This document shows positions 14,448 through 31,440 of a stretch of DNA of 64,000 bases, piece by piece (position 1 is the stretch's first letter; every line of letters begins with the position of its first letter). The DNA is from Pezicula radicicola (Eukaryota > Ascomycota > Leotiomycetes > Helotiales > Dermateaceae). The notes under the pieces are model-generated. The model had not been told where the DNA came from and did no database searches. It worked only from the letters and a program-made list of their open reading frames with translations. Position numbers and translations under genes: made by a program. The stretch spans positions 375,827 to 439,826 of the forward strand of contig PDUO01000017.1 in NCBI GenBank assembly GCA_003008705.1, written 5' to 3'.

Positions 14448-15551
14448 TTAATTTCTTGGCTTTTTCCGTCGACTTATACAGTCTTCCACTGCTTGCTTCA
14501 GTCCTTCCCGCAGTTCAACCAACGGCCTGTACCCGAGCCTTTTCTTCGCTTTGTCGATACAGAAATATCTCGTCATGCAGCTGAGCCGAACCTTGGTTCT
14601 TGTCAAAGGCGGTTCACCTAGCCCGAGTGCCCAGAACACCCACTCCAACAGTCCTGCCAGCAGTAATGCCCACGGTTTGGTGATGACCCGCACTTGATCC
14701 TGCCGCGTTGTATCCCCAGCGTATTCCCAAACCAGCCGTGTGAAGTCCCAGAAGCATTGGGGCTCGTCATTTGTAATAAAAAACGCTTCTCCATCCACCC
14801 TGGCATCATCTTCCGGCGGGATTTTCTGGCATTTGGCCAGAGCGACGGCAGCAAGGTAGTGTGCGTGCGCTACGTTCATATTCTGGGTAAAATCGAATAG
14901 GTTCTGATTATCACCGATCTGCACCTTCGTTTGGCCGCGGTAATAAGCGTCCAGAATCCCAGGAAGCACGACCATGTCCCCAACACCAAAAATGCCGGAT
15001 GGCCGGATGGCGCAGGTCAGGAATTGCTCGGGGGTGGTGTCTTTCGCTCGCTGGTTCTGTGTCAAAACATAAGTCTCCGCGAGAGCTTTGGTATGCACGT
15101 AGAATTCCGGCTGCTGATCACCGATAATCAAGGGAAAAGTCTCGTCGGCATTTTTCAGATCGGTCTTGGCGTCGCTGATGACGCTCGCGGAGCTCGTGTA
15201 CACAAAGGACTGGGTTCCGGATTCCTTTGAGATTTGGATTAAGGTCTTGGTGCCTTCCACGTTGACTTTATACATGATGTGATTTGGAGCATCGAATTTG
15301 GGACTAGCGGTGTGGATCACCACGTCGGGTCTCACGTCTTGAAAGATTCGACGCATTGCATCGGAGTCTGTAAGATCTCCTACGTGATACGTAACACCGT
15401 TGAGACGACGAGAAGGCTGGCGGAGATCAATGGAGTGTAGATTTTTGCAGCCACGCTGCGAGGATAGCTGGAGGATCTGGCTGGCGAGACCGCCGCTGCC
15501 ACCGGTCACAATGACTGTTCCCAGGAGGGGGGATCCCTCGAGTCCAGCCAT
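14448..15551 (-). CDS. Erg26-like sterol 3-beta-dehydrogenase (SDR family)
   Basis: Intronless, 367 residues from the ATG at 15551 (the frame also opens at a TTG two codons earlier). Extended short-chain dehydrogenase of the 3-beta-HSD group: NAD-binding VTGGSGGLASQIL at the N-terminus, the DLTDSDAM segment, the catalytic Tyr-Lys pair in YVHTKALAE, and a hydrophobic patch near the C-terminus (LLLAGLLEWVFWALGL) that could anchor it to the ER or lipid droplets. Erg26 oxidises and decarboxylates 4-alpha-carboxy sterols in C-4 demethylation; fungi also have paralogues in secondary metabolism. Length matches the family. No other sterol gene is next to it, so a paralogue with another substrate is possible. 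Confidence 0.8.
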   Translation of the reverse strand: MAGLEGSPLLGTVIVTGGSGGLASQILQLSSQRGCKNLHSIDLRQPSRRLNGVTYHVGDLTDSDAMRRIFQDVRPDVVIHTASPKFDAPNHIMYKVNVEGTKTLIQISKESGTQSFVYTSSASVISDAKTDLKNADETFPLIIGDQQPEFYVHTKALAETYVLTQNQRAKDTTPEQFLTCAIRPSGIFGVGDMVVLPGILDAYYRGQTKVQIGDNQNLFDFTQNMNVAHAHYLAAVALAKCQKIPPEDDARVDGEAFFITNDEPQCFWDFTRLVWEYAGDTTRQDQVRVITKPWALLLAGLLEWVFWALGLGEPPLTRTKVRLSCMTRYFCIDKAKKRLGYRPLVELREGLKQAVEDCISRRKKPRN

Positions 15552-15776
15552 TATCAATGTCAGCAGTAGGTATTTGATGGAAAGAAGGTGGGAACTTGGA
15601 AGAGACCGAGTAACGCATACTCCTGAATCATACGATAGTGGTAGTGACCACCAATGGTTGTGCTAATTGAGTGCGGGTTAGTCAGCGACCGAATTTCCGT
15701 ACCAGTGGTTGCAGGAATTGAGGTGCAGCCCCCAGATTAGCCAAAATGACCAAAATGAGGCCCTTATGTTGAATTA

Positions 15777-21835: not shown

Positions 21836-22125
21836 CTACCTACTGTTAATTATAATCAACATTTATACGGGAAGTGCTATAGGCAAATAGGCGGGCAATA
21901 TTCGTATTGCTATTATTGTGTGTAGTTAGAAAGAACTAACTAAGGAAGAAGTCAAGGAAGTAGTCAACTTAAGGTTGAGCCACTAGTACAGATTAGGAAT
22001 AGAACGACCATTCCACATGGTAAGTTGCAGCTATATGGGCTTTATCCCAAATTATAAATATTAGCTAACACTTAAGATAGATATAATATTTACTTAACTT
22101 AAAGAGTAATTAACTTAATTAGCTT

Positions 22126-22215
22126 AAAACCCTAGAAAAATATACCTAAGGGCTCCGGTATCATTAAGCGATAAATATATAAATTTATTAATATAACCTC
22201 CTATATACCTAGGTA
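22126..22215. repeat. dispersed repeat, copy 2
   Basis: Partner of 13246-13345; it ends 15 bases before the stop codon of the NLR gene, so it forms that gene's 3' flank. Confidence 0.65.
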
Positions 22216-22230
22216 ATACCTAACCATCAC

Positions 22231-25200
22231 TCAACATAGAAAGAAGTCGTCTTCTGAAGTTTCCGAGGACCATAGTTCTTGTTCCCTAAGAGTAGCTAGA
22301 ACCTCTTCCATTTTCCCAATGTCTGCTTCCTTTGAGGGAGGAGGATTGTCCAGCGAGTCAATGCCATCTGTTTCGAATTTTTCGAGGAGCCAAAGTACTT
22401 GGTCATGCTGCTTCGCGGCGTCTCTTGCTGTGGTGGTAGTCCCGTCAGGCTGCATACATTCTAGCTCCGCCCCCTTCCTCAATAACAGTGTCACCGCTGC
22501 CACACTGCCCATTGTACATGCAGCCATCAAGGGAGATCCCAATGTTCCACCCACGAGGTTGATCTCAGCACCATTGTCCAATAATAGCTCCATAGATGAG
22601 ATATCTCCATGGATAGCTGCTGCGTATAGTGGGGTCCCTTGTCGGCATGGGAAGTTGAGGTACGCGTACAAATCTGTGGATGGTGTTCGTTTTAAAAGCT
22701 CTGCGACGATATCGTTGTTACTGGCAAACGCTGCTTTGTTGAGAATGCTGCCGAAGTTTGAGCCGCGGAGTAAATCGACAGTGGGAAGTTTCTCTAATGC
22801 AAATTTGGAATTGTCATGGTATATTGCAGCCTGAATTGATGAGAAACCAATGTCGTCTACTGCGTTGACATCCAGACCCATGTCAACCAGCAGATCTGCT
22901 GCCGTCATATTGGGCAGTTGGAGAGCATGACGGAGAGCATCTTCACCGGTTGAGTCTCGTGCATGTATGTCGAGCTGGTCGTATGTCTTCATTTTCGTCA
23001 AGAACTTTGTCAGTCCCAGTTGAGCAGCGCGAATGAAAGGAGTTGCCCCTTGACGATCTCGTGTGTTAAGATTAGCACCAGCCCCAGCTAGTAATTCAAA
23101 GGTGTCCGTGTCTACATGGATGTAGATCGAATGTTGAAGGGCAGTCATGCCGCTCTCATCTCTAGCCTCCAGATCAGCTCCTGCCCTCAACAATAACTCC
23201 ACGACCTCGACATATCCATTCACAGCAGCTAGAAGTAGCGGATAACCTCCTTTGATGGGTTCACCGAACTTCAATCCTCGGTAGCTGTTCGCCACGAGCT
23301 TTCGTACCCCAGCATCAACGTCGCCCATCCGAGCGTGTACCAATGTTTTGGGATCTTTGGTCTGCTCAAGAAGCATCTGGACGATCTTCAGATTCCCATT
23401 ATATGCGGCAAGATGTATAGGTTTAACCGAATTTTTCAGGTCTCCGGAAATTGAGGCATTTCTGTCCAAGAGTTCTTTCAGGAGGTCCTCGTGCCCAAAG
23501 CATGCTGCATAATGAGCCGCTGAAAACCCTCCAGTCACTGGGTGTTTCCCGCATGTTACCCCCTCGATCGAGGCACCTACACCCATTAAATACAGAGCAA
23601 CTTCCCACCTTTGATTGGCGCAGGCGTAAAGAAAGGGAGTGCAACCGCACTCACAGAGACCGTCAATGGTGAATCCCCGCTCGACAAGTGTCCGGCAGAG
23701 CAGAAGATTACCTCCTCGGACTGCATCAGTCATAGCTGGTGAGATAGCTTCATTCTCAGTTTCTCTTGATGAAATCTTTCTGAGTTTTGCTAATTCATAT
23801 ATTAGAAGATGATCCAAAGAAAGAATAGTGGAAGGTCTCTGAAAAGTGCTGAGAATCTTTCCACTTACATTGAGACTTTTCCGCATCCTCCAACATCTTT
23901 GTAGGATGGAGTTTTTGGTTCTGTAAGGCAAGAAGTGATGGTCTAAGACCCGAGATATCGGTCGCACAGGCGTCAGCCCCGTGGGAAAGAAGCTCCTCCA
24001 CTATTGTTATATTGCCGAGAAATGCGGCGAGGTGAAGCATAGACCACTTCTTTGGTGTATATAATGCATCAGTTCGGGCTCCGTTGGACACCAGGAACTT
24101 TACCAGGTTTTGATTGTGAGCCAGTATCGCAAAGAAGAGCGGAGTCGTTCCGAGATCTGCATCTACGTTGAAATCTATATTTTCCACATGTTCGAGAACA
24201 TATTTGAAGACTTCCAAGCGATTCGTAAACGCCAGGTGATGCAGTGGCGTAAGTCTATGAACACGAACGGAGACCCAAGTATTATACGATTCGCCACATG
24301 TGTTTGTGCTGAAGGTCGGAACAAAGCTTGATTGGAAAGCGCAGGATGTCCTTTCAGTCCAATCATTGACACCTCGATCATCGAGTAATCTACAAATATT
24401 TATGTTTGGTACTCGGTTGAGAAGGCAAGCTTTCCAGCCACGACCGCTAGATCGTCCCACGTCGATGGAGGCATGATGGTCAAGTAGTAATTCGACGATG
24501 GAGGTGTGACTTCCGGCTATAGCTTCCGCAATTGGAGTTGTACGTTCTCTAGACTCAATGTTAACATTGATGCCTCCATTGAGCAACTCCTGTACCACAT
24601 TGATGTGGCCGTTTAGGCAAGCCAAATGAAGAAGACTTTGACCTTCGAAATCAAGCTCTGATAGATCTTTGCACCGAGAGATGATATCCCGCAGTACTTC
24701 GATGTCTCTTGCACCGTGGATACAAAGCAGCTCTAATGGCGACCGAAATCCCGAGGTCCTATCACGGTTCTGAATTCCAATATTAAGGGCGTGGAGTTCT
24801 TTGATGACTTTGTCATTCATTGCAATGATTGCAATATTCAATAGTAGATCACCATCCGGTAAATGTCGCTTTAAGTGATCTTTTGACGCTTGGCTCAAAA
24901 ACCTGAGGGCTAAATCGGTTGCTTCGTGCCGGCTGTATATTCTACGGATGCTTCTAAAGAAGGCCTGAAGAGCAGTTTCCTTAGACTTGTCCAGTATGTC
25001 CACTTGCGCGACGGTAAATTTTCCTAGTTTGGCAGATCTATTTTTTGGCGAGGCTGGTGGCCTAGGTGAGGGAGACGGAGGTGGTGGTGGTGGCGGTGGC
25101 GGAATCCCCCCCGTTCTCCCTCCTATGATAGTAATTGCAGGTCGCAGTAGCTTTGCTCCCGGAGGCGGAGGTGGTGGCGGTCCGAGTGCAGTGTTTGCAG

Positions 25201-28200
25201 TCCACTGGACGTCAATAAAATCACCAATTGTAAGACACAACGGATGTGTGAATGAAACGGCTCTGCACAAGTAGTGTAGTGCTGTACATCCAGCTGCGTC
25301 TTGTGCGTTTGCATCTACGCCCCTTTTCAACAAGAGAGAAATCGCTGACCCGAGATGATAAGCATCTTCAGCAGTCGAGGTATTCGCATATCTGCTCGCC
25401 AGCGATATCAGAGGTGTTCGTTTTTCTTTGTCACGGTGTTCGAGGTCTATACCAACTCGAGATGTAAGATCTTGAAACATCAGCAATTCTTCTGTGGTGA
25501 AGGGGTCGGCGGATATCAAGAATTGTAAGGCCGTTCTCCCGGACCCAGACGTAATATCAAGCCGACGTTGACTGCCAAAACTATCCAGACACCATGCCCC
25601 ATGGCGATTTTGCAACAACGTGGAATGGTCTATGATTGTTCGTTGCGCGAAAGGATTTGAGGTTGGAAGAGTGACTTCATCAATCTGATCGAGTAACTCG
25701 TGAAGTAATGCGTTGTTGACACCCTTGGCTGCGAAATGAAGTGCCGTGAGCCCTTCGCTGGTCCGTTCAAGATGAGAAATACCACACTTCCGAAATAAAG
25801 ACACCATCTTAGATTTCCCCGATTTAGCAGCGAGGTGCAAGCATGTGTGCCCATCCACGGTTTTTACCAAAAGGTCTGAGGGATTCGATCTCCCGATAAT
25901 GAATTTCGCTGTCTCCACCGAGCCTTCATCAACAGCGCAAAGGAGAGCAGTCCGTCCATTTTTGGTCTTCTCTGAAAGTGTGTGGGTATTGCTGGGAGAA
26001 CCTAGCAGGTGCTCGAGAATGAGTACGCTGTTTCCTCTGGCCGCGAGATGGATTGAGGTCAGGTGTTCCATGGTCAGTTTGTTGATGTCGGCGCCATGGT
26101 CTGCCATAAACTTCACCACATCCACGTCCTTCGCTCCAGCGGCTAGATGAAAAGGAGTGCGTTCCTCGTCATCAAGAGCATCGATATTAGCACCACGGTC
26201 AAGTAGGAGTTTTATGATATCAAGGTGACCGCTTTCGCAAGCAAGATGTAACGCTGTGCTACCTTCAGCATCGGGATCGTGGAAGTTAACCTCTATTTCT
26301 GGCTTCTCTAGAAGCTCTTTGACGACTCGAACTTGGCCAACCATGGCTGCTCTTCCCAGAGCGGAATTGTGATTGATTGGCATGTTTTTTGAACCCTCAT
26401 CTGCTCTCGCCATCATATTCACAGCCTGCTGCCGAGTTTCGTTCATCTCGAGCGCAATATTGACATAGCTTTCAGTCATAAAACATTAGTCAGGTATCAT
26501 TGCAATATGGAGGGTAAGGACGGTTAAGAAGACCTCGCAGCCAAAGAAAGGTGTTTGAAGAAGAAGATACCATCTTTGCAATGACCAAAATCTGCCGTAG
26601 TCAAATGATAGCCAGCTCAGCCTGGATGTAATCGAATGGAACATGTACTAAGACAAATGGTTATTCACCTCAATCTGATATCATCCGAAAGATTTCGATC
26701 TGTGACGGACAGAATGAAACTCTCTGCCAACTCTGATTCGTCCTCAATCAGGTCCTCTACCACCTTCAAGCACGTTTCGTCAAGAACAGCACCTCTTTTG
26801 ACTAGAACTTCCCAGCCAAAATCGACCTTGAGAGCTAAGGCAAGTGGCGACCAGTCATAGTCTGGATGAACTCTGATATTGTCCATAGCTGCACCAGCAT
26901 CCAGCAGACACTCTATTGTCCGAAGCCTGCTATCTTTGTTCGAGGTGTCGGCTTCTAGGAAAGGGCTATTTGTCGGGTACTTCGGTGGAATGACCGCATC
27001 TCGAAACAATTCCTGTCCAGCGATCGCGCAGTAGAGAGGAGTGCCGATGTTGGATAGCTTGTCAACATCGCCAATACAATGTTTCTCTTTAATGAGCCAT
27101 TCGCATGTGCTGTAGAATGATAAGTTAGCTGCAAAGTGAAGGGTTTCTGCGTTAGAGGTCCGTATGATAGTATCATCCGATGTACGGGTCCAAGTCCAAA
27201 AATGGCTCCAGTGGACGAAATTACCGCTTTTCGAAGGATCATAAAGAATCCGAACCAAGTCTAGCAGTGCCTCATCATTGTGGAAACGCCCAGCGTGATG
27301 GAACCAAAATGTGCAGGCATAATCGAAGAATCGGTACTCTTCAATACAGTTGCTAAAGTCCTCTTTTCCAGACCAAATTGCTCCGTCGAAATCATCGAAT
27401 TCGAGATATGTTAAACAGATCTTTGCCAGTAAAAGATCCTGATTTTCTTTTGATACTCGATATCTTGCATATCGGCTCTTTGGGTCGCTCGCATCTATAG
27501 CAAGAAGAAACTCTTCGACGGTAAAGTGCGCCAGTTCAAGTCTCTCGCCGTCCGGCGTCCGCCTGACCAGACTACTGCACCACTTCAATATTCCTTCTTC
27601 ATCCGGCATCGCCTCTCGATCCAGTTCGCTATCACCCTCATTGATTGAGACAGCTTCTAAGAGTTCTTTCGTTGACAGCGGCCTCTTCGAGCATACGATC
27701 CACGTGAGGACTCGCTGCACGAGCTCTTGAGTATCGCAGTTGCTAGCATTTACCCTATCAAGTATTCGTTCATAGGTCGCAAAAAGGGTAGGGGGAAGTG
27801 AATGCAATGCTCGTCGTAGTGCCTTATCTGTGTTCAGCTCGCATAGATAATCCAGTTGACATGCAACCCATCGAACTAGAACAGATCAGCTCCAAGTAGT
27901 CCTGTTTTCACATTCTGAGATCTACTTACACATTCCCTCGGCTCCTTCAATTAGTCGGTCCATGATCTCGTTTTTCAATTCCGGATCTCGTGTCCGAAGC
28001 GTTTTCTTTCGAGATCGATTCTCAATCTCCGCTGCAACGTAGAGTTTGAGGTCGCTGCTTGTAGCAGCGATACTGATTTTCTCGTAATCTTGCAGATGTA
28101 TCTCGATGTCCGTTTCTAATCTGGAGGTAAAGAGTGTCTTGATATTGGACTTCCCATTAGCATTGAGACTTGCGAGGAGTTCCACCACGTGGGAACGTTC

Positions 28201-29544
28201 ACTCCCGCATTCGTCAAGTGCATCAATGATGATCAAAATATCCTCATAATAGACGCTAAACGTTTTAAGAAGCGAGCAGAGGCCGTCGGAAGTAATTGTA
28301 GTTGGAGGCCCTGACTCGGGACAATTTCGTTTGTAGAATTCCTCAAGTCTAGCCATACATCGCTCGTCTTGGATGGCAAGCTGCTTGACTAAGGCACCTA
28401 AGATTACTAGTGGATCATGCGTCTTTGGATCTTTATAATCGCAGTAGAAATATGCTATGCCTATTTAACCTATTAGAAAACAGTTTGGGAGGGACTAGAA
28501 CTAATGGCTAACCGTTAGACTGGTCTAATTGATTAGTTGCAGCTTGAATGATAGAGCTTCTGTGCTACGTTAATTGATTTGCCATCATAACTTGGGGGTT
28601 TTATTAATGGGGAAAGACTTACGTTAAGACTGTTTTCCAGCTCCAGCTTGAAAGATTGTTTAGCATTCAGATCAAAATCATGGCAGAGCAGTTTCTTACG
28701 GATTCCATAGAGCCAAAGTTTAGCATTACTCGTTGCAAGCCAATTCGTGAATTGCAATCCTTCAGTAAACCAGACTCCCGTGCCTGGTTGACGCAACTTT
28801 ATGGCAATATCTTGATGCCTGGAGGGATCATACGTTCCGAATGTGTCAAGAATCATTCTTCTTTCCCTACCTACAAGAAGGCAAGTGTTAGAATCACCTC
28901 GACTTAAAGATTTTAATGTTGGAAAACGCACTTAGTAATGAGAGTGCTTGCTCAGCTCTTTGGGTACGAAGGTTATCCCTAATTTCCCTAATATCATCAC
29001 CCTGTGCCTGCTGTTGACTGAGGGCTTGAAGAAGAGCGGTCCTGAGACTATCAATAAGACTGTCTCTATTTCAGATATAACCGGAGGAGTTGAAAGCTTA
29101 CATTCCATCAGCTGCTAAAGCAAGATTCATGGTTGACTTGTGATTCGCAACCTCGGCAATCAAAGCCTTCGTTTCGGTTGACGTGAAGGGCCAAAGAAGT
29201 GATCGCCCCAGCGTAGATGTCTTGTGGCGCACCAGCGATTTCTTCTCGTCCACTTGGCTCGGGTCTGCTTTATCCAACCTCCCCTTGATGGTTTCCAGGA
29301 GGATGTGACAAGCATGTATGTGCTGCGATTGCATGGTACTTTCGAATGCTTCGTCTTCATATCGTGATGCAACCAGTCGTAAGCTATTCAAGATTCCAAA
29401 TAGGTCTGTGATCTCTTCCAGAAGCTTCTTGACCTCTTTTGAGGCACCTCGTGCTTCTTTGGTGTACTTGTAGCATTTCCCAGCGATCATGTCTGTAATC
29501 GTGATCAGTCCAGCAACGCTTGCTGAGATTGAGAGAGGATCCAT
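22231..29544 (-). CDS. NLR-type NACHT-ankyrin protein, one base missing in Walker A
   Basis: Nine exons: 29544-29102, 29059-28932, 28870-28700, 28646-28623, 28559-28513, 28460-27930, 27875-26669, 26468-23869 and 23789-22231. Order: an N-terminal signalling domain starting MDPLSISASVAGLITITDM (fungal STAND N-terminal type), the linker RQPGTGVWFTEG, NACHT ATPase with Walker B IIIDALDECGSE (about residue 351), winged helix WIVCSKRPLSTKELLEAV, then two ankyrin arrays separated by proline runs at about residues 1280 and 1312. Intact length would be 2236 residues. The Walker A motif lies on a 24-nt exon that reads GGA GCT GGA AAA CAG instead of Gly-Ala-Gly-Lys-Thr; the exon sum is 6710, one below a multiple of three. 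Such proteins act in non-self recognition and programmed cell death. Either the gene is disabled or one A of a homopolymer was lost in sequencing. Confidence 0.85.
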
Positions 29545-30669
29545 CTCGAAGGCTGCCCTTTGCTCTTGACTATTGGGTAATGCCCCGATCTTCTTGAGTC
29601 TTTGAAGGAGCAAGGCTGCGGAATGGTGAGACTTGGAGGAGCGACAGGGCAAGGACTCGGCGGTTAGCTGTCTGTTGGGCGGTATTCTCACGGAAACAGC
29701 TCGAGAGCTACCGTCATAGAAACATAATCCTTGGGTTGCTGCCCGAGAGTTTGATATTGAATAAACCTGAAAAGCTAGCCAGAAACTCCAAGGTTAGAAA
29801 AGTGGTAAGCCACTTTTCTCTTTTAACATGACCAGGGAGGGTCTGCCTCGAGCTCAGCACTAACCATCTCCAGACAAGCCCATTGGTGGAGTCCTCCGAT
29901 GGCACTAGGCGCAGCCTCAACCTGCTCTATCACCCCTGTAAATCCAAGGCTGCAGGGTGGGGGCCATATCTGATAGGGAAAGCTGCTAACCCTGAGATTG
30001 CTTTACCTCCATGCCCGTCCTTGAACATCCTCAGAGTGTCAGCCTCGAGGCTTTGAGGTCTAAAAGATGCAACATAGCCAACTCGGCCATTGCATGGCTT
30101 TGTTATGACACACTTTCATACTCTTATGATCGATTTCGGTTTAACGGAGTGGTCCTTTACATGTGTCATAGTTGAGCACGGGATTGACGTCGTTGGTAAT
30201 GAAGGTCTCATGGCCTTGCTCTGGTATTCATACTGATTGATGATCTTCCTTAGTCTAGGATCCAAATCCGGCTCTAGCAGGGATCCTTATATGTTTGACA
30301 GGAGAGCGGGAACGATTACTATTACGACATTTTGATAGGTTGAAAAAGGTGGCGGTGTTCTAGGCAACGACTATTAGCAAAAGTTTATATAGACAACATG
30401 GAAACCTCCCGTGTATGTTCAGGCTGACTCCCAGGCGTGCTCAGAGGCTCAGGGCTCAGCTCAGGTTAGAGCAGCGACTACTCAGGCCCAAAAACGGAAA
30501 TGGAAACTGGTCCCATCAGGATTCCGATGTAAGATTGGCTGTTATTGAACGGAACTACTTAGAGAGCTATAGTCGGCGTTTTAATGTGTATACCGTATAC
30601 ACTAATGACAAAGCTTTCCTGTGGATTCCTCATAATCCATAGAGCTCCGACAGGGTACCTGTCTTTGTA
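29545..30669. other. intergenic upstream of the NLR gene
   Basis: Contains the NLR promoter by position and a GCTCAG cluster at 30420-30490. I see no gene. Confidence 0.5.
30420..30490. repeat. GCTCAG motif cluster
   Basis: CAGGCTGACTCCCAGG followed by several GCTCAG units; resembles the cluster at 13740-13800 in motif but not in order. Confidence 0.45.
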
Positions 30670-31440
30670 TTAAGGATACTCAATGCCGAGGTCGGTCATC
30701 AGGTCGAGGCACTCGTCATGCTCATCCCATATTGTACAATTACGATTGTTATATCGCTTTAGTACTAGAAATTGCAGTCGTGTAAAGTATGAAGGGATAT
30801 AATAAAACACGCGTGATCTATGCCCGTCTTCATTACCGCCGCGTGGCATTGGTTGAGTAACATATATAAATTGTCGTTTTGCCACAAGCCCCTGGGATGC
30901 CGCTTTCTATGGTACAACTGAGTGGCAGAAGAAACGAGTATAGACATCTGATCTTCTGTCCTTTTGAAGGTATATTGCTAGTGGAGAAGAACTATCATCG
31001 CTGAGATAGCATTCAATCTACGCTAAGAATATCTTATCCAGCCAAGGTATAGTCAAGCCTAGTGGAAGTCCTTTATAGATAACTCTCTGAGATACATTTC
31101 GAGATGCAAACCTTGGTTAGTCATTGTCCAAGGGTCCTTGGTCCAAGGGCGAGAATAAGGCCGAATATTCCCAAAATCCAAAAATGCCATAGGAAACGTC
31201 GCTAGCAAACCGACTTCTTCTCCTTCAGCCTTTTCGCTGAGCCAAGCGAAAATAGACGAGTCGGTACTCATTTTCAGAATCTCAAGCTGCAATCTCATGA
31301 ACACGTTCATGCCTTCGCCTAGAGGGGTGGCATGTTTATACCGAACAGGCCGAGAAGACTGCACGCGGTATTCTCAACTCTAGTAGTGACACGTCTAGCA
31401 GCCTAGGACATATTTTGTGCGATAGACATAGTTAACTTGT
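30670..31440 (-). pseudogene. HET-domain protein, C-terminal relic
   Basis: Reading the minus strand across frames recovers the familiar second half of a fungal HET protein: SIAQNMS, stop, AARRVTTRVENTACSLLG, FGINMPPL, GEGMNVFMRLQLEILKMSTD, SIFAW, then SPLAIYLQKDRRSDVYTR and a short tail. Damage seen: TAG at 31403-31405 where Trp is expected (MSWA motif), a missing base near 31320 between PPL and GEG, and further stops near 31060 and 30925. The N-terminal HET domain itself is gone; the upstream side is occupied by repeats. HET proteins trigger vegetative incompatibility; this copy cannot. Confidence 0.7.

What the first reader, a model, noticed from the sequence alone, without database searches (positions are those of the whole stretch)
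28623..28646. NLR Walker A motif on a 24-nt micro-exon with one missing base
Every other junction of this nine-exon gene fits, yet exons sum to 6710 nt, one short of 2237 codons. The deficit maps to the micro-exon, where GGA AAA CAG stands for an expected GGA AAA ACA. The P-loop would be lost and the protein stopped at once. Either the host silenced an incompatibility or death gene, or one A of a homopolymer was lost in the assembly. A catalytic loop isolated on a micro-exon is itself unusual and would allow switching by exon skipping.
Basis: partly seen in the sequence, partly recalled or inferred. Interest (0 to 1): 0.75.

Follow-up and report, generated by a model that had tools for sequence, protein, structure and literature searches.

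The report
Fungal immune receptor with broken micro-exon
A fungal immune-receptor gene carries its ATP-binding loop on a tiny separate exon, a layout shared by sister genes, and in this genome that exon is one base shorter than in the sisters, so no splice form tried keeps the loop; whether this is a natural loss or an assembly slip needs the sequencing reads.

Summary
On the minus strand, 29544-22231 is a nine-exon NACHT-ankyrin NLR gene. Its exons sum to 6710 nt; exon 4 (28646-28623, 24 nt) encodes PGAGK and then hits a stop. The other exons read 2227 codons without a stop. The micro-exon is no oddity of this gene: nine other NLR genes of this genome carry Walker A on a micro-exon at the same place and phases, all 25 nt, five of them found without a length constraint. 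Four public Botrytis models of its closest relatives look mis-spliced at this intron. Of 4160 splice models with no base changed, none keeps a genuine P-loop. Skipping the micro-exon alone does not save the frame; skipping exons 4 and 5 together does, giving a P-loop-less protein. Likeliest is a recent natural null allele (about 0.6); an assembly slip in a short A-run is the main rival (about 0.3), and only reads can decide. The recurrent Walker A micro-exon is the more general result; I met it in no paper listed by nine searches of an open library (capped listings). RPB2 places the host in Leotiomycetes, probably Helotiales.

The parts
29102..29544 (-). Exon 1: start codon and N-terminal HeLo-like/PigL_N domain (PF17111)
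   Evidence: model; PF17111 E=1.1e-8
28932..29059 (-). Exon 2: linker
28700..28870 (-). Exon 3: ...TGVWFTEG...LWLYGI, ends in phase 1 directly before the P-loop
28623..28646 (-). Exon 4: Walker A micro-exon, 24 nt here; 25 nt in nine sister genes; reads PGAGKQS then stop
28513..28559 (-). Exon 5: 47 nt, SSIIQAATNQLDQSN; in frame with exon 6, not with exon 4 as it stands
27930..28460 (-). Exon 6: rest of NACHT (IAYFYCDYKD..., Walker B-like IIIDALDE)
   Evidence: PF24883 E=3.2e-20, profile 53-164
26669..27875 (-). Exon 7: winged helix (GPIID_WHD) and linker
   Evidence: PF22939 E=8.2e-9
23869..26468 (-). Exon 8: ankyrin repeats with a proline-rich insert
   Evidence: Ank_2 E=8.7e-74
22231..23789 (-). 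Exon 9: ankyrin repeats and stop codon
   Evidence: Ank_2 E=2.3e-44

Best explanation
This is a fungal NACHT-ankyrin NLR (STAND receptor) that has recently become a null allele. Its Walker A loop, which in this class grips the phosphates of ADP/ATP and powers the switch (established knowledge, recalled), lies on a 25-nt micro-exon, shared with sister genes, between a phase-1 and a phase-2 intron. Here that micro-exon is one nucleotide shorter than in the sisters: the frame that reads GAGK and the frame that reads the following SSII helix no longer meet. The spliced transcript ends after 254 residues (N-terminal HeLo-like domain plus linker) and is probably degraded, so the receptor is off. Shown: the gene structure, the short exon, that no splice model tried keeps a P-loop, and the sisters with 25 nt. 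Inferred: that the base is truly missing in the organism, that transcripts decay, and that function is lost.
For: Exon sum and open frames. Nine sister micro-exons of 25 nt at the same site and phases. No splice model of 4160 keeps a genuine P-loop. 60 other homopolymer runs of 4 or more (longest 7) in exons 1-3 and 5-9 leave the frame open, so a general homopolymer problem would have to spare them and hit a run of 4. Only 2 loci with frameshift candidates backed by two or more proteins in 122,874 unique aligned nt of 53 stretches. Damaged NLR copies are common here: 32 of 150 scored NPHP3_N matches hold in-frame stops (counted by hand; some may be introns read through). Published natural NLR damage: Podospora strain Wa87+ het-d with two read-supported stops (PMC12222747, passages).
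Against: No reads, RNA or second isolate could be seen. The lesion sits in an A-run, a usual place for assembly slips, and the same paper reports an apparent het-d deletion that short reads suggest is a misassembly in a small homopolymer. A single lesion in a 6.7-kb gene fits an error as well as a young null. My frameshift scan cannot see breaks inside micro-exons, and it did find two other frameshift candidates, one of them in A-rich repeats.
Confidence: 0.6

Rival explanations
1. Assembly error: the organism has a normal 25-nt micro-exon and the consensus dropped one base of the A-run.
For: A published fungal NLR case of this kind, as the authors judge from short reads (PMC12222747, passage). 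The rest of the gene is open over 2227 codons, as expected of a living gene. Two other frameshift candidates exist in the loci scanned, one of them (L075) in A-rich ankyrin repeats.
Against: The run is only four long, while 60 other runs of 4-7 in the same gene's exons keep the frame. None of the three large RNA polymerase genes has a frameshift candidate backed by two or more proteins; RPB2 (L079) has a one-protein signal, probably its ordinary intron. Sequencing platform and read depth are unknown.
Confidence: 0.3
2. Bypass by splicing: transcripts skip exons 4 and 5 together, or use a weak site in exon 4, and make a long NLR that cannot bind nucleotide normally.
For: Exon 3 to exon 6 is in frame (GIR-IAYFYCDYKD). 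So are an internal acceptor (GI-LLTSSII) and a weak donor GTCTTA (GAGKQ-SSIIQ). Two Botrytis models (P0003, P0006) have the same kind of joint, LYGIR-LAFFYCDYKD.
Against: Those Botrytis joints may be gene-finder artefacts. The annotated donor of exon 4 is GTAAGT and the alternatives look poor by eye (no splice-site scoring was run). No RNA was seen.
Confidence: 0.07
3. Ribosomal -1 slippage on the A-run restores the frame in part of the protein.
For: Four A allow a lysine tRNA to re-pair one base back (sequence).
Against: There is no X XXY YYZ heptamer in the reading frame (by eye). I folded no downstream stimulator. The nine sisters are 25 nt, so slippage is not a family trait.
Confidence: 0.02

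Closest known systems
Fungal NACHT-ANK NLRs with a HeLo-like (PF17111) N-terminus; closest sequences in Botrytis, Ciborinia and relatives
   Same: NACHT and ankyrin order, 33-37% identity for the seven best hits, signs of an intron at the same P-loop border
   Different: This copy has lost the Walker A frame; P0005 and P0028 show an intact GIPGAGKT, P0001 and P0004 GAGKT behind extra residues
Tuber melanosporum nank (NACHT-ANK) family with alternatively spliced codon-sized (3-bp) microexons (Iotti 2012, known here only through passages of PMC3689799, PMC4986451 and PMC10197012)
   Same: Fungal NACHT-ANK genes with micro-exons
   Different: There 3-bp exons said to diversify the receptors; here one 25-nt exon that carries the catalytic loop
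Trichoderma Xlr2 microexon switch (PMC11121469, abstract and passages)
   Same: A short exon carries part of a key functional motif
   Different: Transcription factor, with inclusion shown to be regulated; here no RNA evidence
Podospora het-d/het-e and NWD broken alleles and pseudogenes (PMC12222747 and PMC1805685, passages)
   Same: NLR alleles broken in some strains
   Different: Those passages show stop codons, RIP damage or rearrangement; this is a single frame break in a micro-exon

Membership tests
Fungal NLR / STAND NACHT receptor | N-terminal effector or signalling domain | tested here: met
   PF17111 E=1.1e-8, residues 1-144
Fungal NLR / STAND NACHT receptor | NACHT-type core with hhhhD[GAS]hDE Walker B (motif as quoted in PMC12258605, passage) | tested here: met
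   PF24883 E=3.2e-20; IIIDALDE in exon 6
Fungal NLR / STAND NACHT receptor | Intact Walker A GxxxxGK[TS] | tested here: not met
   GAGKQS-stop; none of 4160 splice models restores it genuinely. Hence a broken member.
Fungal NLR / STAND NACHT receptor | Winged helix and C-terminal repeats | tested here: met
   PF22939 E=8.2e-9; Ank_2 E=8.7e-74
RIP-inactivated NLR pseudogene | Many nonsense codons and lowered GC | tested here: not met
   No nonsense codon in 2227 codons; GC 0.46-0.475 over 22001-30000, within the upper part of the window's range 0.39-0.48. CA/TA ratios were not computed.
Tuber nank microexon genes | 3-bp microexons alternatively spliced | tested here: not met
   The shortest exon in the model is 24 nt; splicing itself was not testable
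Regulated microexon switch (Xlr2 type) | Inclusion changes with conditions | not testable with these tools
   No RNA data

The most novel reading that the evidence does not exclude
The Walker A micro-exon is a splicing switch of NLRs in this group of fungi: inclusion makes a nucleotide-driven receptor, and exclusion (a frame break in the sisters, or the joint in-frame skip of exons 4 and 5 in this gene) makes an off or nucleotide-blind form. The present allele would be locked in the excluded state.
Probability: 0.08. Interest if true: 0.75.

Novelty: new variant of a known kind. Interest (0 to 1): 0.42.

Why it matters
If the base is truly missing, this is a clean single-lesion null of a probable self/non-self receptor that isolates of one species can be typed for. 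The wider point holds either way. Walker A on a 25-nt exon recurs in this NLR family, and several public gene models of its nearest relatives seem to drop or garble it, so surveys that find P-loop-less fungal NLRs from predicted proteins may partly be counting missed micro-exons.

Tried and rejected
Rejected: a chance or mis-modelled micro-exon (nine sisters, same borders and phases). Rejected: rescue by other splice sites that keep GKT/S. Of 4160 models (GT or GCAA donors from 28760 on, AG acceptors, introns of at least 38 nt, up to three introns), 200 were open into exon 6. Four of those matched G-x4-GK[ST], but only as GKHYDGKS made largely of intron sequence. Rejected: RIP decay (no stops, GC not lowered). 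Weak or dead ends: the ERG26-like neighbour did not place the organism; RPB2 did. The upstream HET-like remnant gave no Pfam match. One search was a translation in the wrong frame. The first version of the phase check printed nothing because of a length slip in my expression and was repeated. Paper searches gave no report of a Walker A micro-exon in NLRs. Searches listed only 20 of 2394, 8 of 16, 8 of 210 and 10 of 227 papers, and the library lacks most subscription papers. No structure was predicted.

Rows dropped or unseen: the decayed copy C14 (L035) was left out of the 25-nt count because its exon borders are unclear. Of the 34 hits of the looser pattern (its reversed control gave 9), 11 were looked at as sequence: 8 already known, C143, C103 and C152; 23 were not. 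In one search, P0117 was a false hit of my own expression. One search printed all 120 relatives with a cruder sorting; one search replaced it for the counts.

Full report
WHAT IS THERE. On the minus strand, 29544-22231 holds a nine-exon gene. Pfam finds an N-terminal PF17111 domain, the NACHT-like NPHP3_N core, a winged helix and long ankyrin arrays, so it is a fungal NLR. PF17111 is called HeLo-like in PMC9815663 (passages) and PigL_N in the Pfam copy used. Exon lengths sum to 6710 nt. Exons 1-4 read 254 residues to a stop inside the 24-nt exon 4 (28646-28623). Exons 5-9 read 1980 residues to the natural stop. Exons 1-3 and 5-9 together hold 2227 codons with no nonsense.

THE MICRO-EXON IS A FAMILY FEATURE. 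A search of the same genome with the exon 7 frame gave 55 matches; one with exon 3 gave 19. Four genes (C71, C63, C82, C90) showed an intron right behind LWxxG and then a 25-nt exon CY-GGN-NNN-GGN-AAR-WCN.... A pattern for that arrangement then found 8 places in 61 Mb (these four and C66, C80, C86, C111), against 0 for the reversed pattern. 8 of 8 have an exon 3-like end upstream and the next NACHT exon downstream. That pattern fixes the length, so the fair test is the set found without it: C71, C63, C82, C90 and C143, 5 of 5 at 25 nt. In 9 of 9 sisters the upstream intron is phase 1 and the downstream one phase 2. C143 carries a TGA in the preceding exon. C103 and C152 have the upstream intron only, and among the loci seen several NLRs have neither, so the layout is variable. 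One decayed copy, C14, could not be scored.

TREE. In a 57-row tree (114 columns, weak backbone) the micro-exon label needs 7 changes, at least 2 of them forced by well-supported branches. The window gene lies with the Botrytis relatives in an 18-row clade at 100/100, together with micro-exon-free genes such as its nearest neighbour C25. The four Botrytis rows were labelled micro-exon by inference. Shared position and phase favour an old arrangement with repeated intron loss, but parallel gain is not excluded.

RELATIVES ELSEWHERE. The nearest proteins are Botrytis and Ciborinia models at 33-37% identity for the seven best. Of the 120 listed proteins (870 passed the cut-off), 88 carried the exon 3 motif by my expression: 81 have the P-loop right behind it, 3 have extra residues between (P0001, P0004, P0084), and 4 have none nearby (P0003, P0006, P0099, and P0117, which is a false hit). 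The other 32 lack the motif. In P0001 and P0004 the extra residues start RK, as a read-through GTAAG after ATC C would give, and end in AGAGKT. In P0003 and P0006 exon 3 runs straight into LAFFYCDYKD.

CAN THE SEQUENCE AS IT STANDS BE RESCUED? Enumerating 4160 splice models between exons 3 and 6 gave 200 open ones. None keeps a genuine P-loop: the 4 formal matches are GKHYDGKS strings built largely of intron sequence. In-frame but loop-less or altered options are a joint skip of exons 4 and 5, a 7-nt version of exon 4, and a weak donor inside exon 4 that gives GAGKQ-SSII. Skipping exon 4 alone is not among the open forms that use the annotated exon 3 donor.

NATURAL OR ARTEFACT? For natural: the A-run is only four long, while 60 other homopolymer runs of 4-7 in exons 1-3 and 5-9 are in frame. 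240 relatives (120 NLR, 120 RPB2) were compared with the 80 loci then held: 122,874 unique aligned nt over 53 stretches showed two loci (L075, L076) with frameshift candidates backed by two or more proteins. Five further loci (L015, L026 and L042, which are one gene, L069 and L079) had one-protein signals, not counted; L079 is RPB2 and its signal is probably the ordinary intron. 32 of 150 scored NPHP3_N matches (219 candidates) contain in-frame stops, some of which may be introns read through (counted by hand). For artefact: PMC12222747 (passages) describes an apparent het-d deletion that short reads suggest is a misassembly in a small homopolymer; in the same study another strain has read-supported stops, so there is a precedent for each side. 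If natural, the loss is young: zero nonsense codons puts a 95% bound of about 0.011 neutral substitutions per site since the loss (equal substitution rates assumed).

MECHANISM. In STAND proteins the Walker A lysine and the next Thr/Ser hold the nucleotide phosphates and Mg (established knowledge, recalled). Without them, or with a 254-residue stub, the receptor cannot cycle. Decay of the stop-containing mRNA is expected but not shown.

ORGANISM. RPB2 is 94% identical to a Mollisiaceae protein, with Lachnellula, Sclerotinia and Golovinomyces next at 93%. Mollisiaceae are Helotiales, Leotiomycetes, so a helotialean host is likely; the species is unknown. No close allele of this gene was among the hits listed (best-scoring hit 36% identical), so no allele comparison was possible.

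NOVELTY. Microexons in fungal NACHT-ANK genes are known from Tuber (3 bp), and a microexon switch is known in Trichoderma Xlr2. A Walker A micro-exon in NLRs did not turn up in the nine searches named in Tried and rejected, some of which listed only part of what they found.

Noticed in passing
window 31062-31319, minus strand: Remnant that reads like the region behind a HET domain (TDSSIFAWL...GLLATFPMAF...TMTNQGLHLEM; resemblance recalled), followed by stops, upstream of the NLR gene; no Pfam match.
   Followed up: partly
window 14451-15662, minus strand: ERG26-like dehydrogenase whose nearest named relatives are Pyrenophora, Penicillium and Aspergillus (81-82%; four unnamed or metagenome hits at 84-87%) although RPB2 says Leotiomycetes; patchy paralog or horizontal transfer.
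   Followed up: no
window 39985-60417: Homogentisate dioxygenase, two P450 pieces, FAD-binding oxidoreductase, zinc dehydrogenase, cupin and a Fungal_trans factor lie together: possible catabolic or secondary-metabolism cluster.
   Followed up: no
window 25046-25183, minus strand: Proline-rich insert (GPPPPPPPGAK...PPPPPPPPPSPSPRPPASP) in the middle of the ankyrin array.
   Followed up: no
L012, contig C144 of the window's genome: An NLR match lies in a single open frame of 5070 residues, an unusually long uninterrupted frame.
   Followed up: no
L076, around locus position 1436: A second NLR with a probable single frame break, not in a homopolymer.
   Followed up: partly
L081, contig C143: NLR with an intact 25-nt Walker A micro-exon but a TGA in the exon before it (L-stop-LRGI), so possibly a null of another kind.
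   Followed up: partly
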